DNA of 64,000 bases from Austropuccinia psidii (lineage: Eukaryota > Basidiomycota > Pucciniomycetes > Pucciniales > Sphaerophragmiaceae), in contig JALGQZ010000003.1 of assembly GCA_023105745.1 (NCBI GenBank), forward strand, positions 76,110,696 through 76,174,695, written 5' to 3'. This document shows, piece after piece, positions 25,324 to 60,330 of this stretch. Both the position numbers and the translations under genes were made by a program. Below the pieces are notes generated by a model. The model saw only the letters and a program-made list of their open reading frames with translations, ran no database searches and was not told where the DNA came from. Positions within the stretch are counted from its first letter, which is position 1. Every line of letters starts with the position of its first letter.

Positions 25324-27241
25324 TGTGAGCCTTGAGGTATATTTTACATACCCAAATAGGCCACAATTATGTTAAAAAGAACTTTTGAATTATGCAAAAC
25401 TCATAAGTCATGCATATATCCAAAATTCATCATTTTCAATTTCAGAAAAGATGAATAAATTTTTATTGAGTAAGTAAATCCATGGATTTAAGACCAGATT
25501 TGGATTCTACACAAAAATTCACCTAGGGTAGCTCCATAGAGTGAATAAGCTCAATTTAAGTATTTAAGGTGGTAAAATGGAAAATACTTCAATACCACAT
25601 CATTAATACCACATAAAAGATCCGTGAAAATTTTTGTTTTTCTTGATTTTTAGCCAAAATAATGGGAAAGTGAGAAATCCCATGTTACATATACACTAAG
25701 AATAGTGTTATGCATGTTTTGAGCACTTAATATTATGGTATTCTTACATAGACTTTTGGTACACCCATAGTGGATATCTCACTTTAAGCTTAAATTACTA
25801 TTTTGACGTAAAAATTAGGCAAGGGGGACAAAAGACATCAAAGAGAGCCAGGGTACCCAACTTCTGAGGCCTCAGAGGCATGGATAGCTCCAGAGCATGG
25901 ATCCATGGCTCATCTTGGCCCAATTGGTAAACTAAAACTCTTTGGGAACTTGGTTACCAAGTTACACCTACTGTAATCATAAGAAAAATAGCAAATAACC
26001 TGCTATTTTGACGTGCCAAGGAGGTAATAAGCTACTTAGGCTCCTGTAACCACGTCAATTCTTGATGCCTTTCCATGAATAGACCCTAAAAGAGTAATTA
26101 AACCCTTTTGGGATCCATATTCATTGATTTACCTCATAGCAACCAGCAAAATACTGCTATTTGCAATTCTACGTAGAAATGAGGTAAAAACTTCAAAAAT
26201 TCATTAAAAATACAATTCTTAATGAATCTTCCTGAAACCTTCAGGACCAATGAAGAACTGTATTATCGATGGTACAACCAAAAATAATTATGGTTTTACT
26301 AGTAAAATTAAACGTTTTACTTACAGTCCATTTTTGACCATTCTACGCGAAACACTGAATCTTCAAAAATTCACAGTAATTACAACCTGTGATGAAATTG
26401 GCAATAACATTGATAACTTTGAGAAATCAATGATTATTTTAGAATAAAAGAAGATTTACAGATGTTACTCCTTTTATTCTTAACCATATTGGGGTTGGTA
26501 GTCACCTAAAAGCATCAATTAAGTAATTATGATAATCTTACGTGACAACAGATGATGCAATCATTAATCCAAAAAGGATTATTGTTTTCTCACTCACTGT
26601 TTTTCAGTTTGCTCCATGGCACGCCTCTGTGAGCTGTTGTTGACTTAAAAGAAGCCTATTCTTGCTGTTTTTTCCGTATCATCATCTTATCAATTTATTA
26701 AATCATTATTACCAACAAGTAAGTATTATTTAAAGCTATTCTTAAGTGTTTTAAATCTTTCAGAATCAACCAGAAAGACGTGAAATCATAGAATCCAACT
26801 ATATTTTGTTGTAATACTGTTATAAATCCTTTTGATCCCTTAAATCCACAATTCCACGTCAAATTTCTCTACTCTTACCTATCAATAAGTTCTTTGGAGT
26901 ATTAGTGAGTCATTTATTCTTAATTCTTAAAGTTTTTCTCTAGTAATAGTTTTCTTCAAGAATTATCTTTATAATTATTCTTGCAAAAGATAATTATATA
27001 TTAAAATAATTTTATTATTTTAAGAAAGAAGTTTTTATTATTAAATTCTTGTAATTGATTCTTGTAGACAATTACTTGCTCACTGTTAAAATCACTAGTA
27101 GTGTTTAACACATGAAAGAAATGATTTTTTAATTATTTAATTGTGGTTATAATAATACTTTATTATTATATTTCATAAGAACAGACATAGTACTGTTGAT
27201 TAATAGTAATATTATCATCAGTTTCATAGTCACATCTTACA
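25324..27241 (+). repeat. LTR-B, 5' copy of B2
   Basis: Runs from TGTGAGCCTTGAGGTATATTT to CATAGTCACATCTTACA, 1918 bp, matching the B1 LTRs in reverse orientation. It carries the LTR-B marks: TTCTACGTAGAA near 26165 and repeated ACGT words. A short plus-strand open frame at 26250-26447 recurs in part in the other copies but only because the LTR is repeated; no gene is supported. Confidence 0.94.
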
Positions 27242-27631
27242 TTTGGGGGCCTGGCCGTGTTTTTTGAACCTTGTACCCTTAATTAATATATTTTTAAGCT
27301 CTAAAATACATTAATTTAATAATTTTTTCTTTCATTTTAAAGTTAAAATAATCCTTATTTTTGAAATTGTTTTGAAAATCTTTTCATTGAGGAATTTGGT
27401 TTAATTTTATACTGTTTTCACACGTGGCTTTTTCACATCCAAAAACTTATAAAATTATTCTTTGAGTTAATCTGAATTAATTTTCATTCAAAATCTTAAA
27501 TTTTAATTTTTTTCTTTAAAAAGAATAATTTTTTTAATATTAAAAAATAATCAAATTCATAAAAAATCTTTTAAAAATATCTTAAAACACAAAAATAATT
27601 TCTTTTTTCATATTTTTTTTTCTTCTTTAAG
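27242..27631 (+). promoter_or_regulatory. Leader of B2 with primer-binding-like site
   Basis: TTTGGGGGCCTGGCCGTG (27242-27259) follows the LTR. CACGTGGCTTTTTCACATCC at 27421-27440 is shared with B1 and, nearly, with E. The rest is AT-rich and ends CTTCTTTAAG at 27631; B1 has a better acceptor (TTTTAG) at the same place. No gene is seen. Confidence 0.55.
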
Positions 27632-27790
27632 TGTCTTTAATCAAATACTGTGCAGCTGGTAACAGACTCAGTAAAAGATACATCAATAGTCCAGAATCTT
27701 CAGAAGCAGAATCTGAAGACAGTATTGAGGTGCAGATTGCTAAAAGAGGCACTTTATTCAATTCAGAAAAAGCTAAATTACCACCAAAAG
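27632..27790 (+). other. Putative leader exon of B2
   Basis: A 159-nt segment between an acceptor-like AAG and a donor-like CAAAAG|GTGTGT. The frame reads (N)TG TCT TTA ATC AAA, giving SLIKYCAAGNRLSKRYI and an acidic stretch (SSEAESEDS). The B1 copy at 59782-59940 has the same length and near-identical sequence. No ATG is present in it, so a start must come from elsewhere or be made by splicing. Confidence 0.45.
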
Positions 27791-27841
27791 GTGTGTATTT
27801 TATCTTATATTTTCACCTTTTATCTTTAAATTGACGTGAAA

Positions 27842-30820
27842 ATGGTGCATACCAGAAATGGAAGCAACTATTCAGTCCAACCAGATGGATGTGGACAAGA
27901 AAGAGGCAAGACCAAATCCAGAAGTGCCAAATCTTCCACAAGAAAGACACATCTGGAGGATGCCAGAGTTGCCCCCCATTCCCCAAGGTCTGTACCAACA
28001 GATTTTGACGCAAATTCTGAGCCTGAACTGATTTATGGTAATATTTCCAGGGCTGAACCACTTTCAGGTGGCAGCAATAGAAATATATCAATGCCAGTAC
28101 AAAAACTGGTTCAGAGCAGCCAAGGAAGAGGAGTGGGAAATCTGCCCAAGCCTTTGGCAGGGGGCCATGAACTCCTACTTACACATCAAGAGCTTTCTGG
28201 GTCAGGAGAAGACCATAGAACTCTTAGGAGGATGGAGCCCCCTGTCTTGCAAAGACAAGGTCAAAAAGATAAAGAATTGGTTGAAGAACCAAAGTCTTTT
28301 ATCCATAGACCAGAAGAAAGAGTTGGAAATGACTCCAGCTTTGGAGACAGAGGCACCAGTGGCATCTACCAGCTCCAAACCAGCTCCAGAAGCGCCCAAG
28401 GACAAGCCCAAAGGACCTCAAAAGAAACAGAGAGGTCCCAAGAACCATCAAGGCAAGGTCAAAGGCAAAGCCAATTGGCACAGACCTTACCCACAAGGGT
28501 ACATGATCCCCAAATTGGAGCCTTCAGCCGTGGAAAGTGTCTTCAATATGGCCAGAACTCTTATGGAATTCACAGCCAAGGAGCAGGAAAGGATGAACAG
28601 GACTTTTCCACGCAAATAAATGATGTACATAGAAGTATTGGTGTAGAAATTGGCAAACTTGAGTCGAAGTTAAAGCAAATTACATTAGACATCAATGATT
28701 TAAAGAAAAATGACAAGCAACATTCTGATTGGCATCAAGTGACAACTGTCACCCTTGAGTCAATTAGCAATGCTTGTGAAAGAATTGAGACCCAATGTCA
28801 AAATAATGACACAGAGGATCCTTACATTTTTAAAGTAAATGATAGACTTAAAACTCTTGAAGACCATGTCTTACAAATAGTTAAGAACACCAATCAATTT
28901 GCTATACATTTAGCAAAAAGTGACAGTGAAAGGCAGAAATTGAAGGATGATATAATTGCAAGTGTGGAGCAAATTCATAAGAATCATGAACCACATATGC
29001 CAAGACATTCCACACCTTTGACTGAAGAAGAACTTTCTGTTAAAGAAAGTTTGACTCCTTTCTTAGGAGAAAATGCCTACTCTGCAAGAGATATTCCCAA
29101 AATAGAAGAATGGCCAACATTCTCTGGTGAAGGAGAATACAACCATATTGAATTCATCAGGACTATTGATATGTTGGAAGAAGACTTTAATATACCTGAT
29201 GAAATCATAGTGGGAAAATTACACTGTTTGTTTACCAGAACTGCAAAGAAATGGTATTACAAAATGAGGATTGATCATGGTAAACATGACTGGTCTTGGT
29301 GGAATTCTGAAGTGATTACCAAATGGGCCAATAATTCTTGGAGGTTTAAAATGGAGAATGCTTTTGAAAGTTCCATTTTTAACTCAGAAAAAGACAAACC
29401 ACTTACTTGGTTCTTCAAACAAAAAGACAGATTATCTGCTTTACACCCAGATATGTCTGACACCATGATTAATATGAAAATATTAAGAAAGTGTGGAGGA
29501 GAATTCGAACATGCTATCAAAAGCAGATGTGTGGAACCTTGTTCAACAGAGGACTACATTAATACTATGGAAGATATCATTACCAGGACAAGAATTGGTA
29601 AGACTTGGATTAAAAACCCAATAGAGTCCAAAATAGTCTCAAAGATTCCTAGAGAGGAAAGAAGACCAGAAAGGCCTGTCTTGAAGTGTCATAAATGTGG
29701 AAGTACTTCACATTTAGCCAACACTTGTCCTAAGAAGACAAAAATCAATGAGGTTCAGGTCATTGAAGAAATTCAGAGTACTGAAGAGAAAGAGGAGTCT
29801 GATCAAGATTCTGCAATCTCTGAAGATACACCAGTGGAGGACTATCCCATTGAAAACATTTCAGCTTTCTTTGAGGTCACAGAAGTCCATACCCACTTGC
29901 CACAGTACAGTGAGGATTGCTACAACCTGATCAATATCCAAGATGCCAGAATGTGTAAAACAAAACCTGCTAGAGGAAAGGGTTATACTGCTGGAGCATC
30001 CTGTATAACATCAGTTCTGATGAGTGATATTGAAGCCAAAGTAAATTTGGATACAGGGGCATTTTGCACTTGTGTTGGCAAAGATTATCTCCAAATTATA
30101 CTTCCTGAATGGAAAAACCATCTATTACCAATAGAAGGTGTACAATTCAGTAGTGCCAGTAACAATATGTACCCCTTGGGCATATTGGACACTAATATTG
30201 TAGTCCCACATCCAGCAGGAAGTGTAAGAATGAAAACTGAGATTGTAGTAATGGATAATTGCACATCTCAGCACATCATTCTTGGAAATGATTCCTTAAA
30301 TTTTTATGGTATTGATATAAATAACCATAAAGACAGATATTTCACAATTGGAGATAACAAGAGACAAAAATTTGCTTTCTCCAATGTGCCAAAACAGATA
30401 TCTGTAGTATCTTCTGTCAAAGATACTTACAAAGATGAATTTGTGACTAATCAACTTGTTGAAGCACAAATTAATCAATAATTGTCACCAAAGATGAGGA
30501 ATGAGCTTATTAATGTGTTATACACATATAAAAATGCATTTGCCTCTGATAATGAACCATTAGGCGCTTTAAGAGGACATGAACTTGATATTACTCTTAA
30601 TATTGACAGACCATATCCTCCAGTACTTAGAAGACCAGCTTATCCAGCCAGTCCCAGAGCTAGAGAGGCCTTGGAAAAACATATCCAAGAGTTGATCCAA
30701 CTTGGTGTGCTAAGGAAAGTAGGCCATAATGAGGAAGTTGAAGTGACAACACCTGTTATTATTGCATGGCATAATGATAAGTCAAGAATGGTTGGAGATT
30801 TTAGAGCTTTGAATACCTAC
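27842..30820 (+). pseudogene. B2 gag, protease and reverse transcriptase N-part
   Basis: ATG at 27842 ([11 protein letters not shown]); the frame is open to 30478, then a TAA replaces the serine codon of B1 (INQ*LSPKMRN), and continues in frame to the F insertion after RALNTY. Domains: N-part overlapping a second frame (residues 1-260), coiled-coil-like part (260-380), capsid-like block (about 420-590; [29 protein letters not shown]), zinc knuckle [14 protein letters not shown] (about 617), aspartic protease [12 protein letters not shown] (about 738), RT fingers ([11 protein letters not shown]). The rest of pol lies at 41128-43851. Apart from the stop and the insertion this copy looks recent. 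Confidence 0.9.
28035..28619 (+). CDS. Gag-overlapping +1 reading frame, B2 copy (194 codons)
   Basis: Fully inside gag, in the frame +1 to it (199 nt downstream of the gag frame origin, as in B1). Contains [79 protein letters not shown], a Lys/Pro/Gly-rich basic part ([16 protein letters not shown]), then [23 protein letters not shown] and a stop. It is uninterrupted. A possible alternative beginning is the acceptor-like ATTTCCAG just downstream of the ATG. No domain recognised. The collinear matches in E, A and G suggest a real second product. Confidence 0.68.
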   Translation: MVIFPGLNHFQVAAIEIYQCQYKNWFRAAKEEEWEICPSLWQGAMNSYLHIKSFLGQEKTIELLGGWSPLSCKDKVKKIKNWLKNQSLLSIDQKKELEMTPALETEAPVASTSSKPAPEAPKDKPKGPQKKQRGPKNHQGKVKGKANWHRPYPQGYMIPKLEPSAVESVFNMARTLMEFTAKEQERMNRTFPRK

Positions 30821-31579
30821 TGTCACAGGGGCTCTTCGAAGTGAAGAGGGCCTGGCACTCAGTAAACTGGGACTCACTTATGGAGGGCTCAAAGATAAGA
30901 TAAGATGAGGTACACTTAAGAGTGTTAAAGATAAATTGCTAAAGAATAAATATGAGAAAGCAGCAACAAAAGATAAGAGTAAAAGAATAGAAGAGCCAAC
31001 CACAAAAAAGTCCAAGTCCACTGTTTCAACCTGTCAGAATGGAAAGAGAAGGGTTAATAAGGATATGGCCACCCAACTCATACTGTACAGGCAAAGAGAG
31101 AAATGCAAAGACTAACTTAAGATTAAATAATTATAATACCCAAAATAAGGATAAGAATAATTATAAAATAATAAATAAACTAAATTAATTAACTGGGGAA
31201 AAGTCCCCAGGGGGGAGAAAGAGGGGCTGGTATATGTGAGAATCACCAGCCCTGATCCAGAGGAAGAATTTTCATGAGAATAATTGATGATTGAATTGAG
31301 TCTGGCCAATACAGGTCCTGTACAACTGTACAGAACCTGTACAAGAGGTGTGGTGTATTTGAGTGATCATACAGTTCCATACTGGTGTATTGAAACTGTA
31401 TTGGGTGAATCCAACCTGTACAGGTATTGACAGGCTGTATTGATGTACCAAGCTGTATGCCTGTTTCAGAATGAAGATTGCTGAAACTTACTGCTGATGC
31501 AGATACTGGATTTGCTGATTTGAGGTGTTTGAGTGGGTGTATGACTGAATACCCTTACCCCTGATGGATGGTTGTTACA
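30821..31579 (-). repeat. LTR-F, 3' LTR of element F
   Basis: Plus-strand ends TGTCACAGGGGCTCTTC and GGTTGTTACA. Near-identical to 40364-41122. Between 31310 and 31465 it carries a cluster of CTGTA/CTGTAC words, including CCTGTACAGG. In minus orientation a TATATACC-like box is followed about 40 nt on by CAGTTAATTAATTTAG (31181-31194 core). Confidence 0.96.
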
Positions 31580-32042: not shown

Positions 32043-32522
32043 TTTGGGATGTGGCCTTTGCTCTGATGAAATTTGATGCCTTTGATTTTTTTATGGCCTA
32101 TGGGCCTTTTTGGGTGCTCTGGTGAAAAACCTTGATATCTTGATTTTTAGCCTTTGTTGGCCTTTTTGAGTCTCTGGGATCCTACGGTCCGTGGTCCGTG
32201 GACCGTACGCCGCGGTCCGCGGTCCGTGGGGGCTATTGGAGGCCCCCAGGACCAAAATGGAGCCCCTGGGCCCAAATTTTCTGGGGACCCAGGGTGACCA
32301 AGGGGTCCAGAAATGGCCCTTACCCATTTTTTACCCCACATGGCCTGGACCCATTGATGGGGTCCAGGACCATCAAGATCCTGGCCTCCCCAAAGTTGCA
32401 GGGGAGGCCCTGGGTGATGAGTTCAGCCCCAAAGGGGTATGAACCTTCACCTTAGAGGCTTTGAGGGGGGGCATAATTGAGTTGTGCCCCATCTCCTTGA
32501 GTCAAGTTCCTTTTTTCTTGAT
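32043..32522 (+). promoter_or_regulatory. GC-richer upstream region of the antisense gene, with CGG/CCG array at 32184-32227
   Basis: In an AT-rich window this segment is markedly GC-rich. At 32184-32227 seven-base units GGTCCGT, GGTCCGT, GGACCGT, ACGCCGC, GGTCCGC, GGTCCGT follow each other, giving several CGG-N-CCG inverted pairs. It lies about 300 bp before the ATG of the antisense gene. CGGTCCGCGGTCCG recurs at 6486-6499 in the F-like long LTR. Placement suggests a promoter for the antisense gene; open frames here are probably not coding. Confidence 0.5.
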
Positions 32523-33817
32523 ATGGAGTGGATTGATTCTGACGTCTTGAATCTTCTGCTTGCATATTCTTCAGTTATGAGTTCCAAACTGACTGAGCTC
32601 ACTGAATCTTCCCCTTCTGCACTGCCACCGTCTATTCTTCATGGTTCTGGCGTCTTCAGTCGATTGTCTTCTCCTTCTATGGCGTCTTCTGGCCATTTTG
32701 ACCCCTCCCAAACATATGATGGGTTCAGAGCAGTTGAAGTTCTTGATCCTGCCTGTACTGAGTGTTTGGCCAGGGGTAAGGATTGCTATCAACATTACAA
32801 TCCTCGATTGTCAAAATGCCATTTCTGCTTTATTGGGAAGAAACCATGCCGCCGTACCGGATCAACTTTGTCCCAGGTCAGGAGACACTTGTGGAGTAGG
32901 AAGGATGGGCCTTATGGGCAGGAATTCCCCATTCTTGAGGAACCTACCCCTGATGCAACTTCTGGGTTTTCCCAATGTGAGTGAATTGCATATTTTGATT
33001 GAATTGGTGCTGATATCTTGATGTAGTGACTGGTTCCAGGCAGAGGGATGTGGCCAGATGGACTAATGTTGGAGGGTCCATTCCAATTGGTGGTAGGCCC
33101 ATACACTACAGCTCAGAAATTCCAATTTCAAGGACCAATGCTGATGGAGTGGTGAAAGTAGTGAAGAAGCTAAGAAGAATTGTTGATTCCCCATCAGATA
33201 CAGATGCTGAAGGAAGTCATGAGTTGGATGGTGAAGAAGTTCAAGTTATTCCTCATTCAAGTGGCCATCCATCCAGCAATTCCTCTTCTAAACCTCTTGC
33301 CAACACCAGATTCCAAAGTCAAGTCATTCCCAGTACTCCTAGAACCTTTCAACCAATGCTTGCCTCCATTCCTACAACCCTTCCTCCTCCTTCACCAACT
33401 ACTTCCCATGCCACCAGGCCTGCCTTGAATCCAGCAGTAAGACCATAACCAGTTCAACAGCCTAGAAACTCACCCATAACCACCTCCCGTCAACTCCAAC
33501 CTGTGGCCAGCTCCAGCAGAAGAAGAGATGGATTATCCCCTTTGCCGTTTCCTGCCGCCCAAGTCTTCCAAAGAAGAGAACGTTGGCCTATCCGGGTTAC
33601 CAGAGAAGATCCCAACGCGGCTAGTGAAAATCAAGATGCTGTGGCCAGATTGTTCAGGAGGGTTGATAGAAATAGCAGAGAGGTGATTATGTATGCCAAT
33701 GACAGGACTATTCCAGGTACTGCTTCTGAAGAGATGGCTGCAAAATTTGCCTGGTATGAGGATTAGTTGATAAGTGACTTCCAGAGAACTTTTGATGACT
33801 TGGGTAGAGATAACTAG
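32523..33817 (+). pseudogene. Antisense gene of element F with Zn2Cys6-type cysteine cluster, two stops
   Basis: Two exons: 32523-32976 (ATG, MEWIDSDVLNLLL) and 33027-33817, joined by a 50-nt intron with GTGAGT donor, CTGAT branch-like site and GATGTAG acceptor; the frame is kept across it. Exon 1 residues 78-109 have spacing C-x2-C-x6-C-x10-C-x2-C-x6-C, the Gal4-type binuclear zinc cluster pattern (CTECLARGKDC, CHFCFIGKKPC), followed by a basic patch (RRTG, RRHLWSRK). Exon 2 is Ser/Pro-rich (VIPSTPRTFQP, PTTLPPPSPTT) and ends with an acidic-basic tail (EDPNAASENQDAVARLFRRV, IPGTASEEMAAKFAWYED). In-frame stops at 33446 (TAA) and 33764 (TAG); the true end is probably 33817 (DDLGRDN). It runs against pol, between the pol end and the 3' LTR. 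Confidence 0.65.
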
Positions 33818-34574
33818 TTTAATTTTCCTTGTTTGTGTTTGGTTTGGCTTCTATCCCCACTCTTATAATTACTAAAAACTTAAATAAAAAATAAAAAAGA
33901 TAATGGAACCTCCCAATACATGATTTGGGGAGGGGATGCTGCTGCTTTAAAGAAATAAAAGAAAGAAAATTATACAAGTAAAGAAAGAAAGAAAAATAAT
34001 AAGAGAAAATGAGAGTAAAGAAAGAAATATAGAAAAATCCTGATGGTTGGTCCTTCTTGTGGTGAGTTGCTTGGTTCTGGCCAAAGAAGTGTCTGAAAAA
34101 TGAAAACCAAGCATTTTGATGCTCACAGAGTGGGCAAGGTGATGTTTTACAAGAAGTAGAACCCTCAGGGATGCATACCAGGAGATGGAACTTACTTTCA
34201 TAACTTCCACTCCCCACCAAGCACCATAAGACTGAAATAAATTGCCATAAATGACTACTGAAATGAATTGCCGTAAATGACTTGAAGTAATGAATGTCTT
34301 GAATTATGATGATTGGCATAAAGTGAAATGATAATAAAGAAAGAAAATGAAAACATAAAGAAAGAAAGAAAATATTTGGCCATATCTTGATAAGGTCCAA
34401 ATGGAGGGTATTGATGTTGTATGCTTCCTGAACCTGTCCAAAGAATTGACAAGTGCTCACAAAGTGGCCAAGGTGATGCTTACAACAACATATGGGTAGA
34501 ATACCCCCTTAAAGGTGCATGCCAGGAGAGGAACTTACTTTCATAACTTCTTCTCCCCACCAAGCACCATAAAA
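33818..34574. repeat. Non-coding spacer with a diverged direct duplication
   Basis: About 760 bp between the ends of the two convergent genes. Stretches of AAGA/AAAG simple sequence (33950-34030, 34330-34370). A block around 34107-34231 (AAGGTGATG, GGAACTTACTTTCATAACTTC, CTCCCCACCAAGCACCATAA) recurs diverged at 34455-34570. No gene is supported. Confidence 0.6.
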
Positions 34575-37500
34575 TCAGACTCTTGAGGTATTTGGACCAG
34601 GCTTGTCTGGATACAATGAGTGGAAATCCTTGACAAGGTCTGGGGAGTTGGTAAGGTTGGAAGCTGGTTCCCAAGTGGTTCTTTCTGGGTCTTCACTGAA
34701 TCCTTTCCACTCTACAAGATACCATAATTTACCTCTTTTGAGTTTGGAGTCCAGAACCTGAGCCACTTCCCATTCTTCTTGCTCTTCCACTAAAACTGGT
34801 GGTGGCGGCAATTGATGACGATTTGGGATAGTTGAATGCTTGACTGGTTCTAATAGAGACACATGGAATACAGGGTGAACTGTCTTCCATTGCTGAGGCA
34901 ACTTGAGGTGATATGCATGGCTGCCAATCTTCTCAAGAACTTCAAAGGGTCCCAACCATCTTTCTGATAATTTCTTGGTGGGTCTTGTTGTCTTGATGTT
35001 CTTGGAAGCTAGCCATACTTTGTCCCCAGGTTGGAAATCAGGTGAAATTGCCCTATTTCTATCTGCATACTTCTTGAATCTCCTTATTGCTGACTCTAAT
35101 TCTTCTTTGACAGCTTGCTGTACTGATTGGGGTTTTGTTGATAATTTTCCAGCAGGTGAGTCTTGAGAAATATGGATTGAGTCAAAGCTGGGATTTCTTC
35201 CATAAATGGTGAAAAAGGGTGATTGTTTGGTTGAGGAATGTTCTGCATTATTATAGGCAAATTCAGCCAGAGGGAGCCAGGTGTACCAGTCATCTTGATG
35301 ATAGCTGACATACATCCGAAGGTATTGTTCTAGTATCTGATTTACCCTCTCTGTCTGTCCATCTGTTTCAGGGTGAAAAGCAGTTGAAAGATCTCTTGAT
35401 ATTTTGAGCTGCTGACACAATTGAGTCCAGAATGATGAAACAAATAAGGATCCTCTATCACTAACAATACTGACTGGGAGTCCATGCTTGGAAAATACAT
35501 GACTAATGAGTATTTGAGCTAAATCCAGAGCAGTGATTGTGCCATAAGTTGGAATGAAGATTGCCATTTTTGAGAATCTGTCCACAACTACTAAAATTGA
35601 ATCAAAGTTGTTGGACAGTGGCAATTGAGTGATAAAGTCCATTGATAATGAATTCCAAGGACCAGATGGAATTGAAAGAGGCTTGAGTAATCCAAACTTC
35701 TTGTGATGAATGTTCTTGTTTCTTGAACATTGCTGACATGAGGACACATAGTCCTTGATGAATTGATTCATGCCAGCCCAATAAAAATCCCTCTTGATGA
35801 TCTTGAGGGTCTTCTCCTGGCCAGGATGGCCAGCCAATGGTGAGTCATGACGCTTTTGAAGAATATTGAGTTGAAGTTCTTCATTGCTTGGGATTACCAC
35901 TCTATCTTTGAATAATAATAACTTGGCTTGAGGTTCAAGAGAGTAATCTGGAACTGATTCACCTCTTGCTAGTTGCTTGAGTATTTCTTTGTAGTCTTTG
36001 TCTTGCCATACTTCTTTTTGAATCTTGTCAACTAAATCTGAGAAAATTTCCACTTTTATTGAGAAGAATCTTGACTCTTGAATTCCATCTTGCTTAAGTA
36101 CTTGATGAAAATTCTGAGGATTCTTGCTGATGAAGTCCACCCCCCTCTCTGGGTACACGTCGTCCCGACGTGACAAGGCATCTGGTAGAGTGGCCAGCCT
36201 GCCTGGGCGGTAAGTGATAGTGAAATGAAATTCTGAGAGAAATTTGGCCAAACGGGCCTGACGACGAGTAAGAACTTTGGAAGACATGAAATATTGCAAG
36301 GAAGAGTGGTCTGTCAAGACCTCAAAAGGATTGGAAAGAGAAAGAAGAAATGCTCTCCAGCGCTTCAGAGCCCAAACTATGCCAAGGAGTTCCTTGTCAT
36401 GAATTTCATAGTTGAGTTCAGCTGGTAAGAGCTTGCGACTATCAAATGCAATGGGGTGCTTTCCTGAGTCATTCACCTGGCTCAGTACGGCGCCCAAAGC
36501 ATAATCAGAGGCATCAGTCTCTACTATAGTAGGTAGAGAAGGATTAAAGTGAGATAAGATAGGAGCAGAGGTGAAAGCTTCTTTGAGTGCTTGAAACTAA
36601 CTAAGAGCTTCCTCATTGAAGATGAAAGGAGAATCTTTTTTAAGGAGGGAAGTGAGGAAAGTGATTTTTTTACAATAATTTTTAATGAAACGTCGATAAA
36701 AATTGGCAAAGCCAAGGAAAGATTGAAGAGCCTTGATGTTTCTGGGCTGAGGCCAATTGAGGATTTGCTGAACTTTTGAAGAATCCATCTTGAGGCCATC
36801 ACTTGAAACAACATAGCCCAAGTATTCCACACTTGAGGCATGGAATACACACTTGGAGGCTTTGGCAAACAGATTATTGTCCCTCAGTCTTTGGAGGACA
36901 GAGGCCACATGTTTGACATGTTCCTCCTCAGAACTGGAAAAGACCATAATATCATCTAGATAAACCACAACAAACACATCCGAAAAATCTGCAAAGATAT
37001 CATTTACTAGATTTTGGAAAGAAGCAGGAGCATTGGTCAAACCAAATGGCATGACCAAATACTCATAACTGCCATATTTGGTTCTAAAGGCAGTTAAGTG
37101 CTCATCCCCCTCTTTGATTCTCAGAAGGTTATATGCACCACGCAAATCTATCTTGGAGAAGATAGTGGAACCGTTGAATACGGTAAGGAGCTGGTTCATA
37201 GGAGGAACAGGGTATCTGTTCTTCCTAGTGACAGCATTGAGTTTGCGGTAGTCAACACACAAACGAAGACCTCCATCCTTTTTCTTGACAAAAAGGACAG
37301 GTGCTCCTGTTGAAGAGGAGCTTGGTCTAATGAAACCTTTCTCTCCATTCTCTGAAATGTAGGCCCGCAGTGTTTCTGACTCTTGATTTGATAATGAGTA
37401 GATAACACCAATTGGAGGTAGAAGACCCTCCAATTCGATATGGTGATCACAGGCGCGGTGTGGAGGAAGTTTCTCTGCTTTCACCTTGGAGAATACATCC

Positions 37501-38299
37501 AAATATTGGTGATAAGCAGGAGGAACAACCTTCAACACAGTTTCAATTTCTTCTGGCTCTTCCTCCTCATCCCACTGCTCCTCCAGGGATGCATGAAAAG
37601 ATAAGGGAGCAAGGTCCATATCCCCTTGGAAGAGATGAAGTGAAGATATGGCAACATCTTCTCCAACATCCTTTATCTCTTTGAAGACTTCATCTCTTGA
37701 TGGAAGTAATGACTGAGAGGGAGTTATGGAAGGGATATGGACAGAAGAAGGGATGGAAGGTGTCTTAAGTTCACCAGCCAGAGCAACACTGTTGACAGCA
37801 GTGGCTAATTCATTACTAGTAGAAGGAATAATACCACTAGAATCCTTATGATTAGAATCATAGGTGATCAATCCATTTTTCCAATCAATAATGGGATTGA
37901 AATGGTAAAGGAAATCATAGCCCAATATCAGGTCTTCTCCTTTGGGTGAATCTATGATAAAGAAATCCCATTCAAAGCTTGGGAAGGAAGGCAAGTCAAC
38001 TACCCACTTGGTATAATGGGTGATGAACAAGGCAGGGGATTCATTAGAATCCAAAATGAAAAGAGGAAACTTTTCAGGGAGCTCTGACAGAGTCAATGAG
38101 TACTTGAGAACAAAATTCTTTGCAATAAAAGAGTTTGTAGCACCAGAATCAATGAGAATACTATAAAAAATATCAGAGACAGAAGAGAAAATAAGAAAAT
38201 TTAAAGATTTCTTGACACTAGTATTCAGAGTGCACAATTGTGCTCTTGAAGGAAATAAGTGAGAACCATTGAACACATCATGATCCCCACTCAGGCTTT
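34575..38299 (-). pseudogene. Element F pol: protease, RT, RNase H, integrase, chromodomain; one stop
   Basis: Reads in the -1 frame relative to gag, entered through a slippery site at 38297-38303. Order: protease LIDSGATNSF (about 38150), reverse transcriptase with RLCVDYRKLNAVT, MPFGLTNAPASFQ and YLDD intact (about 36960), RNase H (ETDASDYALGAVLS, ITYRPG), integrase zinc part (AGHPGQEKTL, SSCQQCSRNK) and D,D,E core (VVVDRFSKMAIF, VSDRGSLF, DGQTERVNQ), GPFEVLEKIG module, chromodomain (LWYLVEWKGFSEDP, TWEPASNL; about 34700-34770). A single TAG at about 36597 interrupts the RT-RNase H link; the frame is otherwise continuous to 34575. A chromodomain of this kind marks chromoviruses and is known to guide insertion into marked chromatin. 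Confidence 0.92.
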
Positions 38300-39640
38300 T
38301 CCCTGCTTGCTAGGGAAGCCTCCTGATGATAACCCAGGCTTGTTCTGAGGTCTCTTGAAGCATTTTTCAATTGGGTGCTTGCCACCACAATAAGTACACA
38401 ACCCTGCTTGAATCCTCCTCTCCTTTTCAGAACCAATTAATTTATTGTCCTTATTGAGGAGAGCAGCATGGGGTTTGTCCTTTGAAGATTGAAATTGCTT
38501 GCCCTTCTTATTCTTCTTCTGATGAGGCCTCTTTTGAAATGAGTTTTGAGGAGGCCTAGACTGATTGGATCCACTGACTGTAGGCTTCTTTTCTTGATTG
38601 CCACCCTTTTCCTTTTGCCTCTCATGATATCTTGTGTCTAATTCTAGAGTGACATCCATAAGTTCTTGAAGAGTATCAAAAGTTCCAGGGTGAGAAGCCA
38701 ACTGATCCAATAATCTTGATGCCAATCCTCTTCTGTACACATGAATGTAAGCTCTTTCCCCCCAATCTCCAATTCTTGACATTAAGCTTCTGAAATCTGC
38801 TATGTACAAGGATACATGACCACTTTCCTTCATCCTCAAATTGTCCAACTCTTGTTCAGCTTTCCTGACTTCATTGGGGTCACCAAACAGAGTGAATAAT
38901 TGAGATTCAAACAATGGCCAATTATTGAGGAGGTAGGAAGGGTCTTCATTGGAAATATTTGAGAGGTAAGGTTCAATCCATTTTCCAGCTCTACCAGTAA
39001 GAAAAGAAGTTGAGTACAAAACCTTCTTCCTGTCAGAGAAGAAGTTTGCTGGATCATTATGGAAAATTAGTTGACAGGATTGGATAAATCCTCTCAACTT
39101 ATGAGCTTGAGTACCATCAAAAGAATCAGGTGCCTTCATTGATGGAGTCTTGAAAGCAGGGGCTTTGGAATTGTCCCTGGGGGCAACTGCTTGAGTGAGT
39201 TGTCCCATGAATTGAGTCATCTGCTCCATCATCTTGAGGAGACTTGGGTCAGTTTGAGAGACAAGAGGTTGACTAGAAAGGGCTAGATTAGAACCCTGAG
39301 GCACCTCTGGAGCATTTGCCACTTCAGTTTCCCCAGAATCTTCCTCTTCCACACACTCTTCCCCCTCTTCATCTTCAACTTCCCCTAATCTTGCTCTTGC
39401 ACCTTCAGACATGCCAGGGTAGCCACCCAAAAGTCCAGAAAAGGATCTTGATCTTCTAGATTTCATTCCACCTCTTCTTGAGGGTGCTGCTCCTTCCATT
39501 GGTGGTCCTCTGTCCAAGTTTGCACTCAGTTGATGAACTGAGGGTGTGCGGTCAAGAGGGGCCCTTGCTGTAGGAGTGAGAACAGCTGGAATTTTCTGGG
39601 ATCTAGTATTCTTTGCTGGGGGGCTATGCTGGACTGGCAT
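38291..39640 (-). CDS. Element F gag (449 aa)
   Basis: ATG at 39638-39640 (MPVQHSPPAKNT), uninterrupted to TGA at 38291-38293. N-part Ser/Arg-rich (PSRRGGMKSRRSRSF), an acidic stretch (DEEGEECVEEEDSGE), then a capsid-like domain of the Ty3 retrotransposon gag type (about residues 160-310: PDSFDGTQAHKLRGFIQSC, KVLYSTSFLTGRAGKWIEP, LDNLRMKESGHVSLYIADF), a basic linker and one zinc knuckle CTYCGGKHPIEKC near residue 420. The last codons CAG GGA AAA carry a -1 slippery heptamer. This is the only fully open gag outside B1, and probably makes the virus-like particle. Confidence 0.92.
   Translation of the reverse strand: MPVQHSPPAKNTRSQKIPAVLTPTARAPLDRTPSVHQLSANLDRGPPMEGAAPSRRGGMKSRRSRSFSGLLGGYPGMSEGARARLGEVEDEEGEECVEEEDSGETEVANAPEVPQGSNLALSSQPLVSQTDPSLLKMMEQMTQFMGQLTQAVAPRDNSKAPAFKTPSMKAPDSFDGTQAHKLRGFIQSCQLIFHNDPANFFSDRKKVLYSTSFLTGRAGKWIEPYLSNISNEDPSYLLNNWPLFESQLFTLFGDPNEVRKAEQELDNLRMKESGHVSLYIADFRSLMSRIGDWGERAYIHVYRRGLASRLLDQLASHPGTFDTLQELMDVTLELDTRYHERQKEKGGNQEKKPTVSGSNQSRPPQNSFQKRPHQKKNKKGKQFQSSKDKPHAALLNKDNKLIGSEKERRIQAGLCTYCGGKHPIEKCFKRPQNKPGLSSGGFPSKQGKA
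38297..38303 (-). promoter_or_regulatory. Candidate -1 frameshift site G GGA AAA at F gag/pol
   Basis: Minus strand GGGAAAA, in gag phase caG GGA AAA, is an X XXY YYZ heptamer two codons before the gag stop. A -1 slip leads straight into the protease-RT frame (SLSGDHDVFNGS). A downstream RNA structure was not tested. Confidence 0.6.
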
Positions 39641-40363
39641 TATGAAAAGAATTAAAATAACTTGATGGTATTAAGAAGAATAATCAGGCTTGGCCAAATC
39701 AATCACAATAAGATCTTGATGAATCTTGAGGAATCAATTCAAATCTTGAGGAATCAAATTCAATCAACAGTCAAATAAATTCAATCAATCAACAATCAAT
39801 TCAAATCAAATATCAATAATCTTGAGGGAATCAATAATCAATCAATAATCAATCAATAATCAATCAATGAGTGTCTTCAATATGAAATCAAGTCTTGAGG
39901 AATCAACCAATCAGCTCAAAATCTTCAGAAATCAATTCAATATGTTGATGAGTCAAATCAAATCAATAATCAAAATCAATTCTTGAGGATCAATCAATAT
40001 CTTGAGAGTTCAAAGTCAATAAATCCAATAAATCCTGAATCAATAACCCAAATAAATCCCAATTAATAATCCAATCAATTAAACCAATCAATAATCCCCA
40101 GATAAAACCTGAATAAGAACACAGAAAAAATTTGATTGATAAAAAATAGAATGAAGTGATGAAATGGTCAGCAATGATTAAGAAAGGAAAAAGAATCAAT
40201 TTTCATAAGAATGAAAAGAATGAGATGGAAATTGATGAGAGAGAAAATTTCATAGAAAATCATAAAAAATCATAAAATCATGAAAAGGTCATAATTGATG
40301 AATGAGAGGAAATGAATATAAATGAATGAAAAGAAAGAATCAAATATGAGTTAATTAATTTAA
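39641..40363 (-). repeat. Leader of F: AATCAATC-rich repeats and primer-binding candidate 40348-40363
   Basis: From about 39700 to 40100 the plus strand is a low-complexity array of AATCAAT, CAATAATCAATC and ATCTTGAGGAATCAA words, with no gene. Next to the 5' LTR, the minus strand reads TTAAATTAATTAACTC; 14 of these bases are complementary to LTR-F itself (40724-40737), a layout like the self-primed Tf1 group. Confidence 0.6.
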
Positions 40364-41122
40364 TGTCACAGGGGCTCTTTGAAGTGAAGAGGGCCTGGCA
40401 CTCAGTAAACTGGGACTCACTTATGGAGGGCTCAAAGATAAGATAAGATGAGGTACACTTAAGAGTGTTAAAGATAAATTGCTAAAGAATAAATATGAGA
40501 AAGCAGCAACAAAAGATAAGAGTAAAAGAATAGAAGAGCCAACCACAAAAAAGTCCAAGTCCACTGTTTCAACCTGTCAGAATGGAAAGAGAAGGGTTAA
40601 TAAGGATATGGCCACCCAACTCATACTGTACAGGCAAAGAGAGAAATGCAAAGACTAACTTAAGATTAAATAATTATAATACCCAAAATAAGGATAAGAA
40701 TAATTATAAAATAATAAATAAACTAAATTAATTAACTGGGGAAAAGCCCCCAGGGGGGAGAAAGAGGGGCTGGTATATGTGAGAATCACCAGCCCTGATC
40801 CAGAGGAAGAATTTTCATGAGAATAATTGATGATTGAATTGAGTCTGGCCAATACAGGTCCTGTTTAGCTGTACAGAACCTGTACAAGAGGTGTGGTGTA
40901 TTTGAGTGATCATACAGTTCCATACTGGTGTATTGAAACTGTATTGGGTGAATCCAACCTGTACAGGTATTGACAGGCTGTATTGATGTACCAAGCTGTA
41001 TGCATGTTTCAGAATGAAGATTGCTGAAACTGACTGCTGATGCAGATACTGCATTTGCTGATTTTAGGTGTTTGAGTGGGTGTATGAATGAATACCCTTA
41101 CCCCTGATGGATGGTTGTTACA
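40364..41122 (-). repeat. LTR-F, 5' LTR of element F
   Basis: A 759-bp LTR with ends TGTCACAGGGGCTCTTT and GGTTGTTACA on the plus strand, equal in length to 30821-31579. Visible differences from that copy are about ten substitutions, three of them clustered at CTGTACAACTG versus CTGTTTAGCTG. A TATATACC-like box (minus strand, about 40774) precedes the CAGTTAATTAATTTAG stretch by about 40 nt. Confidence 0.96.
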
Positions 41123-41127
41123 CCTAC

Positions 41128-54027: not shown

Positions 54028-57000
54028 TCAGGCTTGTGGCCTTCTTTCATGTCTAAATCTTCTTAAGAGTTTATCTGAGTCAGGTATTTCTGATTCTGCC
54101 ATCCATTCATCTTCATGTACTGGATTTCTATATCTGACAAGATATTCTCTTTGATTTTTACCCCTAAGTCTCCTTTCTTTAATGACTTTCTTTATCTTTC
54201 TGTCTTCATTCTGTTCCACAGGGGGCACAGTTAAAGGAGTTGGGTTCCTTAAAGGAAACAATTCTTTGTCAGCTGGTTGATAAGGTTTTATCAGGCTGAC
54301 TGGAAATGTGGGGTGTTTATTTTCCAATTCACCACTCAATTCCACTTGAACTGCATTGGTTCCATGTAAGGCAACAATAACAAAAGGTCCTACATAAGAA
54401 TCTTTAAGTTTCTTTGGGCCTTTGATATTATTAAAATTCAAGGTTGAAACTAGAACTAAGTCCCCTACTTTGAAGTCTGGTACTTTATGACTCTTGTCCC
54501 ACTTCTGTTTTGCATAATCAAAAGCATCATCCATACTTTGTTTTGCATGGTGTTTTACTTTATCAAGCATTAATTTGAAGCTGGAAGATGTAGGATGAAT
54601 GTCAATCAAGTCTTTCCTCAGTGTGTCTGCTGGGAGTCTTGGATTCCATCCTTTTTCTAACATAGCAGGAGTTTGTCCTGTGGAAGAATGGACTGATGTC
54701 TTGTATGCCAATTCTAATGCAGGTATTAGAGTGCACCAGTCATGGGTAAAGCCATCTGAGTCTTTAAATTCTAATCCATAAGCACAAAATCTCCTGATCA
54801 TGTCTTCTAAAGTTTGAATCATCCTCTCTGCTAGCCCATCTGTTTGAGGGTGATATGCTGTAGAGAATGATAACTTAGTCCCAAACAATCTATGAAGATT
54901 GGTCCAAAGTGCAGATGTGAACTTGGGGTCTCTGTCACTTATGATATTCTTAAATAACCCTGTATGAGAAATAACTCTACTCCATAAAAGAAGAGCTGTA
55001 TCCATAGCAGTGTCATCTTTATGACATGGTAAGAATATGGGAGTTTTGCTATATCTGTCTACAATGACTAAACAAGCATTATAACTTTTGTCACCACTTG
55101 GAGGAAGTGCTGTGACCCAATCCATGTGAACAACTTCCCACGGGGATTTTGGTTCTTGAATATGGATCATTAATCCAAATTTCTTGCCTGTACTCCTGTT
55201 TGCTTTTTGGCATCTATCACAGGTATGGCAATATTCAATGGTTTCTTTTCTCCAAGATGGCCACCATGCACAGTTCTTCACCTTTTCAAGTGTTCTGTCT
55301 TCTGATAGGTGTCCAGAGTAAATGCTATCATGGCATTCATGAAGAATGGTATTGATGAGCAATCTACTACACAATGTCATCACACAAGAATGTTTTGTTC
55401 TATGGTAAATAATCCCATCAAACAAGTGAAATCTTCCTTCAGAATAGGAATTTTTCCAAACTTCATCTAGTGTATTAACCAAAGATGTGTCTTTGCAGTC
55501 TTTATCCAATAAAGAAGTCAAGATATGGCAATTCTTGTCTTGTTTATAAGACTCTCTGACCTCTTCAAAGAATTCAGTCCCAATATCAGTTATGTTAATT
55601 CCTTCAATTGGAATCTGTGGTTCAGCTTCCAAAGGTACATAAGCTGGGTTATCAGGAGTGTTGGCTAAAGCCCATCTACTAAGTCCATCAGCATTTTTGT
55701 GAATGTTTCCTGATTTATGAACTATAGTCATGTTTCCTCTATATTCTTGAATGGCTATTTGCCATCTCAACATATGTCTGTTGGGAGTTTTCATGTTAAG
55801 AAGTGATTTCACGGCATTACAGTCAGTTATCACTTCAAAAACACTGCCATCAAGGTAATAGTGTAATTTCTCAAGTGCCCATACCAAACATAAGCACTCC
55901 ATTTGGCTTGCACCATATCTGGCTTCTGTTGGTTTGATTTGTCTTGAGATATAACAAACTGGTCCTTCTGTAGGTTTGTCATCAATAATTTGGACTTGGT
56001 GTAGGGCTGCCCCTAATCCATCCCCACATGCATCAATGTACAATTTAAAAGGAATATTCCAGTCAGGCATGAGGAGTAAAGGTGCTTCTGTAAGGGCTTT
56101 CTTTATCTTCTCATAAGCTTTAATTCTTTCCTGTGTCATTTCAAATACAGTCTGTTGATCACAGATTCTATAAAGTGACTTGGCTAGAATTGCAAAATCT
56201 TTCAAATGTTGCCTATAGTAACTAGCAAATCCAAGAAAAGACATCATTTCTTTTTTATTCTGGGGTATTGGCTTAAGTAACACTGCTGCTACTTTATTCT
56301 TGTCAATACCCAAGCTCAAACCAGAAACAACATGTCCTGATGCTTTGAGTTCTTCAAAACCAAAATTGCATTTCTTAAGTGAAATTTTCATGTTCACTTC
56401 TGCAACTTTATGAAGTACTCTTGCAAGTCTTTCAAGGTGCAAAGACCATGAGTCAGAACATATAATAATATAATCAATATAAATGATAAGCCATCCTTCA
56501 GACAATTCTGTGGGGAAGATGGTATTCATCATTCTTTGATAATGAGATGGAGCATTTTTAATGCCAAATGGCATTCTAAGATACTCATAAATACCACAGT
56601 GAGTGATAATTCTAAGTAATTTCTTAGCTTTAGGCGTCAAAACATTTTGATGAAAGCCTTTTAATGCATCCATTGATGTTATATACTTAGCTTTAGACAA
56701 TTGAGTCAAGGTTTCTTGAATTCTAGGGATTGGATACCTATCTGGAACTGTGTAGGTATTCAAAGCTCTAAAATCTCCAACCATTCTTGACTTATCATTA
56801 TGCCAAGCAATGATAACAGGTGTGGTCACTTCAACTTCCTCATTATGGCCTACTTTCCTTAGCACACCAAGTTGGATCAACTCTTGGATATGTTTTTCCA
56901 AGGCCTCTCTAGCTCTGGGACTGGCTGGATAAGCTGGTCTTCTAAGTACTGGAGGATATGGTCTGTCAATATTAAGAGTAATATCAACTTCATGTCCTCT

Positions 57001-59730: not shown

Positions 59731-59781
59731 TTTCACGTCAATTTAAAGATAAAAGGTGAAAATATAAGGTAAAATACACAC

Positions 59782-59940
59782 CTTTTGGTGGTAATTTAGC
59801 TTTTTCTGAGTTGAATAAGGTGCCTCTTTTAGCAATCTGCACCTCAATACTGTCTTCAGATTCTGCTTCTGAAGATTCTGGACTAGTGATATATCTTTTA
59901 CTGAGTCTGTTGCCAGCTGCACAGTATTTGATTAAAGACA
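59782..59940 (-). other. Putative leader exon of B1
   Basis: 159 nt on the minus strand between acceptor TTCTTTTAG and donor CAAAAG|GTGTGT. Frame (N)TG TCT TTA ATC AAA, as in B2. Product begins SLIKYCAAGNRLSKRYI, then an acidic stretch. The B1 acceptor is better than the B2 one. No ATG lies in it. Confidence 0.5.
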
Positions 59941-60330
59941 CTAAAAGAAATTATAAAAGAGAAAAAATTATTTTTTATACTTTATAAAATATTTTTTTAA
60001 AGATTTTTTATAAGTTTTATATATTTTTTAATATTAAAAAAATTATTCTTTTTAAAGAAAAAAATTAAAATTTAAGATTTTGAATGAAAATTAATTCAGA
60101 GTAACTCAAAGAATAATTTTATAAGTTTTTGGATGTGAAAAAGCCACGTGTAAAAACAATATAAAATTAAACCAAATTCCTCAATGAAAAAGATTTTAAA
60201 ACAATTTCAAAAATAAAAATATTTTAACTCCAAATTGAAAGAAAAAAATTAATTAAATTAATATATTTTAGAGCTTAAAAATATATTAATTAAGGGTACA
60301 AGGTTCAAAAAACACGGCCAGGCCCCCAAA
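59941..60330 (-). promoter_or_regulatory. Leader of B1 with primer-binding-like site
   Basis: Minus-strand TTTGGGGGCCTGGCCGTG (60313-60330) follows the 5' LTR; CACGTGGCTTTTTCACATCC at 60131-60150 is conserved with B2. Otherwise AT-rich, no gene. Confidence 0.55.

What the first reader, a model, noticed from the sequence alone, without database searches (positions are those of the whole stretch)
32523..33817. Spliced antisense gene with a perfect Zn2Cys6 spacing carried by chromovirus F
Between the end of pol and the 3' LTR, on the opposite strand, lies a two-exon gene with a 50-nt intron (GTGAGT...TAG). Exon 1 has C-x2-C-x6-C-x10-C-x2-C-x6-C at residues 78-109, the pattern of fungal Gal4-type binuclear zinc clusters, followed by a basic patch and a Ser/Pro-rich second exon. 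Antisense frames at this place are known in some plant Ty3 elements (RIRE2/Retand type), but I know of none with a transcription-factor-like cluster. It might regulate the element or the host.
Basis: partly seen in the sequence, partly recalled or inferred. Interest (0 to 1): 0.88.

Follow-up and report, generated by a model that had tools for sequence, protein, structure and literature searches.

The report
Spliced antisense gene in rust retrotransposon
An abundant mobile element in a rust-fungus genome carries, on its opposite strand, a selected and spliced gene that may encode a DNA-binding regulator, next to a short repeat array that is the most CpG-rich spot of the region.

Summary
Inside a Ty3 chromovirus (LTRs 30821-31579 and 40364-41122, TSD CCTAC), between pol and the 3' LTR and opposite to both, lies a two-exon gene (32523-32976, 33027-33817; start probably Met19, 32577). 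This copy is broken by two in-frame stops. In 31 of 40 close copies the spliced 415-codon frame is open; 38 of 40 keep all six cysteines. Over 27 copies of divergent subfamilies median dN/dS is 0.33. GT/AG and branch sites change 3-6 times less than the rest of the intron. So it is a selected, spliced protein gene of an abundant element. The Gal4-type label is not established: spacing fits, but PF00172 does not match, AlphaFold gives no confident cluster, and cysteines decay like other residues in mostly dead copies. New here: about 300-400 nt upstream, 40 of 40 close copies have 2-14 tandem heptamers (mostly CGGTCCG), the CpG-richest spot of the window in a largely CpG-depleted element. Best guess: a nuclear DNA-binding regulator acting on its own element's array (inferred). 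Antisense accessory genes are known in plant Retand elements and reported in Botrytis (brtn): new variant of a known kind.

The parts
30821..31579 (-). 3' LTR (759 nt)
   Evidence: 98.56% identical to the 5' LTR over 762 aligned bp; ends and TSD CCTAC at 30816-30820 and 41123-41127
32185..32226 (+). tandem heptamer array (6 units, YGGNCCG/CGGTCCG type), candidate cis site about 300 nt upstream of the gene
   Evidence: TRF period 7 at 32186-32229; an array in 40 of 40 close copies with 2-14 units, CpG o/e 0.94; CpG-richest 100 nt of the window
32523..32976 (+). exon 1 of the antisense gene as read from Met1; start probably Met19 at 32577
   Evidence: residues 1-18 unconstrained
32754..32849 (+). 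six-cysteine cluster C-x2-C-x6-C-x10-C-x2-C-x6-C
   Evidence: kept in 38 of 40 close copies; regional pN/pS 0.27 across subfamilies
32977..33026 (+). 50-nt intron, GTGAGT donor, CTGAT branch at -17, TAG acceptor
   Evidence: GT..AG in 39 of 40 close copies and 21 of 25 divergent 51-nt introns
33027..33817 (+). exon 2 (Ser/Pro-rich, then conserved helical C-terminus); broken in this copy by stops at 33446-33448 and 33764-33766
   Evidence: codons 353-413 pN/pS 0.26; two helices with pLDDT about 72-86 in P0003
34575..36596 (-). pol part 2: RNase H, integrase, chromodomain
   Evidence: Pfam RT_RNaseH, Integrase_H2C2, rve, Chromo
36597..38309 (-). pol part 1: protease, reverse transcriptase; same frame as part 2, one stop at 36597-36599 between them in this copy
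   Evidence: Pfam RVP_2, RVT_1
38291..39670 (-). gag open frame, with its own CCHC knuckle near the end (read by eye)
   Evidence: Pfam Ty3_capsid, Retrotrans_gag
40364..41122 (-). 5' LTR (759 nt)

Best explanation
An accessory protein gene of a chromovirus family that amplified strongly in a genome of Austropuccinia psidii or a near relative. It is transcribed antisense to gag-pol from a promoter between the 3' LTR and the gene, spliced once, and makes a protein of about 396 residues: N-terminal six-Cys module, basic patch, Ser/Pro-rich linker, helical C-terminus. SHOWN: an open spliced frame in most close copies examined, conserved splice signals, purifying selection on codons, convergent position relative to pol, and a CpG-retaining heptamer array upstream in 40 of 40 close copies. 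INFERRED: transcription and its promoter; that the cysteines bind metal; that the protein enters the nucleus, binds the CGG-N-CCG heptamers (perhaps as a dimer through its C-terminal helices) and regulates its own family in trans, either autoregulating the antisense promoter or keeping copies from being silenced by CpG methylation. Because the sense genomic RNA is the replication template, the antisense intron would not be lost on retrotransposition. The gene part I hold at about 0.95; the number below is for the whole mechanism.
For: Open 415-codon spliced frame in 31 of 40 close copies, six Cys in 38 of 40. pN/pS 0.39 in this frame against 1.05-1.30 in four other frames; the fifth, 0.48, has at least 12 stops in every copy. 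Biallelic variants whose minor state is in 2 or more copies: N:S 22:19 (binomial p 0.003 against a neutral 2.97 estimated); singletons 105:45, p 0.19. Median dN/dS 0.33 over 340 of 351 pairs of 27 copies. pol C-terminus 0.47 (15 loci) against 0.35 for the antisense gene (13 of those loci). Lowest regional pN/pS: C-terminal helices 0.26 and cluster 0.27. Intron: GT/AG 0.079 and branch 0.047 pairwise difference against 0.271 elsewhere. pol C-terminus on the opposite strand in 25 of 30 divergent loci. Array: 40 of 40 close copies, 2-14 units, CpG o/e 0.94 against 0.00-0.24 in six other segments; two or more degenerate units in 22 of 30 divergent copies against 1.0 expected. Zn2Cys6 proteins typically bind pairs of CGG triplets (PMC5559640, passages); TEs in A. 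psidii are CpG-methylated and the genome CpG-depleted (PMC12774611, passages).
Against: No significant Pfam, NCBIfam or PDB match (weak ones only, such as Metallothi_Euk2 E 0.079 in 3 of 35 members and one kinase chain at E 1.5). AlphaFold low at the cluster, helix plus hairpin rather than the two-helix Gal4 module; no fold match at E <= 0.001. The position of Gal4's CGG-contacting Lys18 is Gly here (register recalled). Cysteines in mostly decayed copies change as often as other residues, 17.3% against 16.9%; 26 of 89 annotated relatives keep all six. The low cluster ratio across subfamilies owes much to high pS (0.47); its pN (0.128) is not the lowest, and among the 40 close copies the cluster has pN/pS 1.00 on few changes. 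Strict CGG.CCG sites within 800 nt upstream: 108 in 40 close copies, 1 in 30 divergent ones, lost also in L050 and L052, which have no stops. A two-unit array sits at 6486 in a stretch with no relative of the gene. The 40 close copies are the best matches, not a random draw. No RNA or methylation data could be examined.
Confidence: 0.42

Rival explanations
1. The protein is an accessory factor that does not bind DNA by sequence: for example an RNA or nucleoprotein factor, or one that blocks a host defence, with the six cysteines as a structural module; the array is only the CpG-rich promoter of the antisense gene or a microsatellite.
For: Selection is as strong on the helical C-terminus as on the cluster; no DNA-binding domain is recognised; a two-unit array exists at 6486 without the gene.
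Against: CpG retention concentrated in the array, in the 40 close copies, inside a largely CpG-depleted element; triplet palindromes fit a zinc-cluster type binder.
Confidence: 0.35
2. A true member of the fungal Gal4-type Zn2Cys6 family captured from the host and used as a transcription factor.
For: Exact C2-6-10-2-6 spacing; basic residues between and after the cysteines (by eye).
Against: PF00172 finds 5 places in the whole genome, none a listed copy; none in 35 relatives; models not Gal4-like, at low confidence; Lys18 position is Gly.
Confidence: 0.12
3. The antisense RNA itself is the functional product (for example it makes double-stranded RNA with the genomic RNA) and the open frame is incidental.
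For: Antisense transcripts of LTR elements may regulate them, as discussed in PMC7264820 (passages).
Against: Codon-level selection, dN/dS 0.33, and conserved splice sites that keep the frame.
Confidence: 0.05
4. A chance open frame, or an overprinted sense gene that creates the codon signal.
For: One sense-strand frame shows pN/pS 0.48.
Against: On the spliced sequence every sense-strand frame has at least 11 stops in each of 40 copies.
Confidence: 0.01

Closest known systems
Antisense additional ORFs of plant Retand-lineage Ty3 elements (Grande gene23, RIRE2, Retand; TRP28 domain PF04195)
   Same: Gene between pol and 3' LTR, antisense to gag-pol, kept in nearly all recently active elements, predicted DNA binding, proposed regulatory role (PMC11963269 and PMC7264820: passages seen).
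   Different: Host is a rust fungus and the element a chromovirus (Retand is non-chromovirus); no TRP28 match; six-Cys module; a conserved short intron; CpG-retaining heptamer array.
brtn of Boty-like retrotransposons, Botrytis cinerea (Zhao et al. 2011)
   Same: An additional antisense gene in a fungal Ty3-type element (title seen in reference lists, and a methods passage that calls it an additional ORF).
   Different: Paper not held, protein not compared; whether brtn has such cysteines, an intron or an array is unknown to me.
Gal4-type Zn2Cys6 transcription factors (PF00172)
   Same: Cysteine spacing; neighbouring CGG triplets in inverted and everted arrangement.
   Different: No profile match, no confident fold, Lys18 position not basic, predicted helices far from the cluster.
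VANC anti-silencing proteins of Arabidopsis VANDAL transposons
   Same: Works-like parallel: TE-encoded protein plus short motif in variable tandem repeats of the TE's own noncoding DNA (PMC5735166, passages; PMC10398659, abstract).
   Different: A different kind of transposable element and, as far as I recall, an unrelated protein (not compared); for this element binding and demethylation are untested.

Membership tests
Gal4-type Zn2Cys6 (PF00172) | C-x2-C-x6-C-x(5-12)-C-x2-C-x(6-8)-C spacing (range recalled) | tested here: met
   38 of 40 close copies keep all six
Gal4-type Zn2Cys6 (PF00172) | Match to the Pfam profile | tested here: not met
   no family at E <= 10 in the window product, no PF00172 in 35 relatives; genome search 5 hits, none a listed copy
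Gal4-type Zn2Cys6 (PF00172) | Two-helix binuclear zinc fold | tested here: inconclusive
   pLDDT 34-44 over the cluster (full length); 58-69 falling to 41 at the last Cys (86-aa piece); helix plus two strands
Gal4-type Zn2Cys6 (PF00172) | Basic residue at the CGG-contact position (Gal4 Lys18) | tested here: not met
   by eye Gly, flanked by Arg/Lys and Lys; Pho7 also lacks it, and mutation of its CGG abolishes binding. Gal4 register recalled
Gal4-type Zn2Cys6 (PF00172) | Binds two zinc ions and CGG DNA | not testable with these tools
   needs protein
Retand antisense ORF (TRP28) | Antisense, between pol and 3' LTR | tested here: met
   convergent with pol in 25 of 30 divergent loci
Retand antisense ORF (TRP28) | TRP28 domain PF04195 | tested here: not met
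   not among Pfam hits
Retand antisense ORF (TRP28) | Non-chromovirus plant Retand lineage | tested here: not met
   chromodomain at the end of pol
Boty brtn | Sequence relationship to brtn | not tested
   sequence not held; one search listed no copy of the paper
VANC-like anti-silencing system | Short motif in variable tandem repeats of the element's noncoding DNA | tested here: met
   heptamers, 2-14 units in 40 of 40 close copies
VANC-like anti-silencing system | Element-encoded protein binds the motif and removes methylation | not testable with these tools
   CpG retention (o/e 0.94) is only compatible with it

The most novel reading that the evidence does not exclude
A fungal LTR retrotransposon carries a two-part, VANC-like system on its antisense strand: a spliced zinc-cluster-like protein and a matching, fast-changing CGG-N-CCG heptamer array that it binds to keep its own family from being silenced by CpG methylation. 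This may help explain the explosion of the element in a gigabase rust genome.
Probability: 0.18. Interest if true: 0.87.

Novelty: new variant of a known kind. Interest (0 to 1): 0.62.

Why it matters
The function of antisense accessory genes of Ty3 elements is described as unknown in the two reviews and surveys seen here. Here one is shown to be protein-coding under selection, spliced, and paired with a candidate target array in a genome where, by published work, young elements are CpG-methylated. That makes the question of what such genes do directly testable, partly with existing RNA-seq and PacBio methylation data. If the pair is real, it would be a non-plant example of sequence-specific self-regulation or anti-silencing by a transposable element.

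Tried and rejected
Pfam, NCBIfam and PDB sequence searches for a domain: nothing significant. Two structure predictions and two fold searches: low confidence, no match at E <= 0.001. Relatives outside this species: 792 proteins at E <= 1 and 1205 at E <= 10, but only the best 120 of each are listed, and those carry the name Austropuccinia psidii MF-1, so other rusts remain untested. Poly(A) signal downstream: AATAAA in 40 of 40 close and 29 of 30 divergent copies, but 61% of mononucleotide shuffles of one copy have it too, so no weight. CGG or CCG in the LTRs: none. Cysteine columns as proof of zinc function: rejected, they decay like other columns. Genome-wide count of the heptamer array: not completed. 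Overprinted sense gene: rejected.

Full report
WHERE IT LIES. The window belongs to a 1.015-Gb assembly (84 contigs, window at C3:76110696-76174695). The best 120 listed protein relatives are named as Austropuccinia psidii MF-1 hypothetical proteins, and that species has a genome of just over 1 Gb with Gypsy TEs dominant (PMC8063080, passages). I infer A. psidii or a near relative. The host element is a Ty3 chromovirus on the - strand: LTRs 30821-31579 and 40364-41122, 98.56% identical over 762 bp, target duplication CCTAC on both sides, gag 38291-39670, protease-RT 36597-38309, RNase H-integrase-chromodomain 34575-36596. pol is split by one stop at 36597-36599 in this copy.

OBSERVATION. On the + strand, tail to tail with pol, exons 32523-32976 and 33027-33817 flank a 50-nt intron with GTGAGT, CTGAT starting 17 nt before its end, and TAG. 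The six-cysteine spacing is exact and unique in the window, 0 of 100 shuffles. This copy has stops at codons 292 and 398. The genome search scored 40 copies of this DNA out of 3287 first-look candidates, all 40 full length at 98-100%; candidates are not confirmed copies. In 31 of the 40 the 415-codon frame is open, GTGAGT plus TAG is kept in 38, GT..AG in 39, and six Cys in 38. These 40 are the best matches, not a random draw.

SELECTION. Among the 40, pairwise pN/pS is 0.39 in the spliced frame; the other five frames give 1.28, 1.17, 1.30, 0.48, 1.05. All five, read on the spliced sequence, have at least 11 stops in every copy. Biallelic variants whose minor state is carried by two or more copies have N:S 22:19, against a neutral 2.97 (p 0.003); singletons 105:45 fit neutrality (p 0.19); the direct contrast of the two classes is p 0.06. 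This is the pattern expected of a gene selected in live elements and decaying after insertion. An earlier form of the test agreed. In the same 40 copies the pol C-terminal end has pN/pS 0.79 and stops in 14 of 40, but the copies were chosen by similarity in the antisense gene.

DIVERGENT SUBFAMILIES. A protein search with P0058 scored 125 of 9121 candidates and gave 160 matches. Thirty loci were returned; 7 were left out of the codon work for frameshifts, indels or partial exons (L043, L044, L046, L060, L064, L065, L069). With 23 divergent and 4 close copies, 340 of 351 pairs had dS above 0.1: median dN/dS 0.33 (interquartile 0.29-0.37, maximum 1.00), although 21 of the 27 carry at least one stop. 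Regional pN/pS: residues 1-18 0.95, 19-75 0.41, cluster 76-112 0.27, 113-151 0.44, 152-215 0.38, 216-300 0.54, 301-352 0.35, C-terminal 353-413 0.26. The cluster's low ratio owes much to a high pS (0.47); its pN, 0.128, is about average. The start is more likely Met19 (32577) than Met1. pol C-terminus is found in 25 of 30 loci, always on the opposite strand. In the 15 loci with a clean pol end its dN/dS is 0.47 (100 of 105 pairs), against 0.35 for the antisense gene in 13 of them (74 pairs).

INTRON. In 25 of 30 divergent copies the intron is exactly 51 nt; 21 of the 25 are GT..AG and 23 of 25 keep CTRAY at -17. Mean pairwise difference is 0.079 at GT/AG, 0.102 over the six donor bases, 0.219 over the last three bases (the third from the end varies), 0.047 at the branch, against 0.271 in the rest of the intron. 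This is conservation of splicing in the antisense direction.

IS IT A ZINC CLUSTER? Spacing says perhaps; nothing else does. No Pfam family at E <= 10 in the window product; in 35 relatives only weak chance-like hits, among them Metallothi_Euk2 at E 0.079 in 3 members. The genome as a whole has 5 PF00172 matches, none at a listed copy. AlphaFold on P0003 with 94 relatives: mean pLDDT 51.5, cluster 34-44, two C-terminal helices at about 72-86. A second model of 86 residues with 45 relatives: 58-69 over most of the cluster, 41 at its end, helix and hairpin. Fold searches gave nothing at E <= 0.001. The six cysteines vary in 17.3% of 27 copies, like the average residue, 16.9%; 26 of 89 annotated relatives keep all six, each position 80-91%. 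Most of the 27 carry stops, so this neither proves nor disproves function. Among the 40 close copies the cluster region has pN/pS 1.00 on few changes. I therefore do not file it as a Zn2Cys6 member.

THE HEPTAMER ARRAY. 291-395 nt upstream of Met1, 40 of 40 close copies carry an array of 2 to 14 heptamers, degenerate units allowed: 106 of 225 units are CGGTCCG, 162 are YGGNCCG. Measured between fixed flanks, 37 of 40 array lengths are multiples of 7; in two the flank was missed and in one not found. CpG observed/expected is 0.94 in an 80-nt zone over the array, against 0.04 (LTR part), 0.04, 0.00 and 0.05 (spacers), 0.11 (pol end) and 0.24 (gene). In the window copy it is the CpG-richest 100 nt of the 64 kb, with 10 CpG; the next, with 6, lies in exon 2 at 33541; the window mean o/e is 0.15. 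Of 30 divergent copies 22 have two or more degenerate units, 187-350 nt upstream, against 1.0 expected from dinucleotide shuffles (maximum 4 in 60); 7 have three or more. But strict CGG.CCG is nearly gone there (1 site, against 108 in the close copies), also in L050 and L052, which have no stops. A two-unit array in a similar setting at 6486 lies away from any copy of the gene. Fungal Zn2Cys6 factors typically bind CGG pairs, inverted, direct or everted (PMC5559640, passages). A. psidii TEs are reported as hypermethylated and the genome as CpG-depleted (PMC12774611, passages). A CpG-rich array inside such an element suggests selection on it, recent expansion of the array, or protection from methylation.

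MECHANISM. Most likely an element-encoded nuclear regulator that recognises its own family through the array. The nearest functional parallel is VANC of Arabidopsis, which binds short motifs in variable tandem repeats of its own TE and causes loss of methylation (PMC5735166, passages; PMC10398659, abstract). Binding, localisation and expression are all inferred here.

KNOWN AND NEW. Antisense genes between pol and the 3' LTR are known in plant Retand-lineage elements, with a TRP28 domain predicted to bind DNA (PMC11963269, passages; review PMC7264820, passages). One is reported in Botrytis Boty-like elements, brtn (seen as a citation and one methods passage; paper not read). For the statement that an antisense zinc-cluster gene in a fungal chromovirus is not in print I rely on searches, whose listings (14 of 14, 20 of 154, 4 of 4, 10 of 53, 7 of 7 and 8 of 61 papers) named none by title or start of abstract; the longer lists were not seen whole. 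Two A. psidii genome papers and one rust TE paper do not contain the words zinc or antisense in their main text. So: new variant of a known kind, with that limit.

Noticed in passing
window 6380-6620, array at 6486: Two tandem CGGTCCG units in a GC-rich palindromic setting resembling the flanks of the array at 32185, in a window stretch with no relative of the antisense gene; perhaps a non-autonomous element sharing the motif.
   Followed up: partly
40 close copies of 32523-33817 (L001-L040): Substitutions among close copies are rich in C>A and G>T transversions (61 of 226 changes), nearly as many as C>T plus G>A (68), in a genome described as shaped by 5mC deamination.
   Followed up: no
13-15 divergent loci of L041-L070: Median dS of the antisense gene (0.46) is nearly twice that of the pol C-terminus (0.25); faster mutation, mosaic origin or constraint on pol synonymous sites.
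   Followed up: no
window 34187-34229 and 34530-34572: 43-nt direct repeat, 95% identical, 343 nt apart, in the spacer between pol and the antisense gene.
   Followed up: no
whole genome G000: Only 5 PF00172 matches at E <= 0.001 in 1 Gb (48 first-look candidates, all scored), so Gal4-type factors look scarce in this genome, as far as single-exon matches show.
   Followed up: no
window 25324-30820 and 56752-62252: A 5.5-kb segment repeated in inverted orientation at 96% identity; the window looks like a pile of nested retroelements.
   Followed up: no
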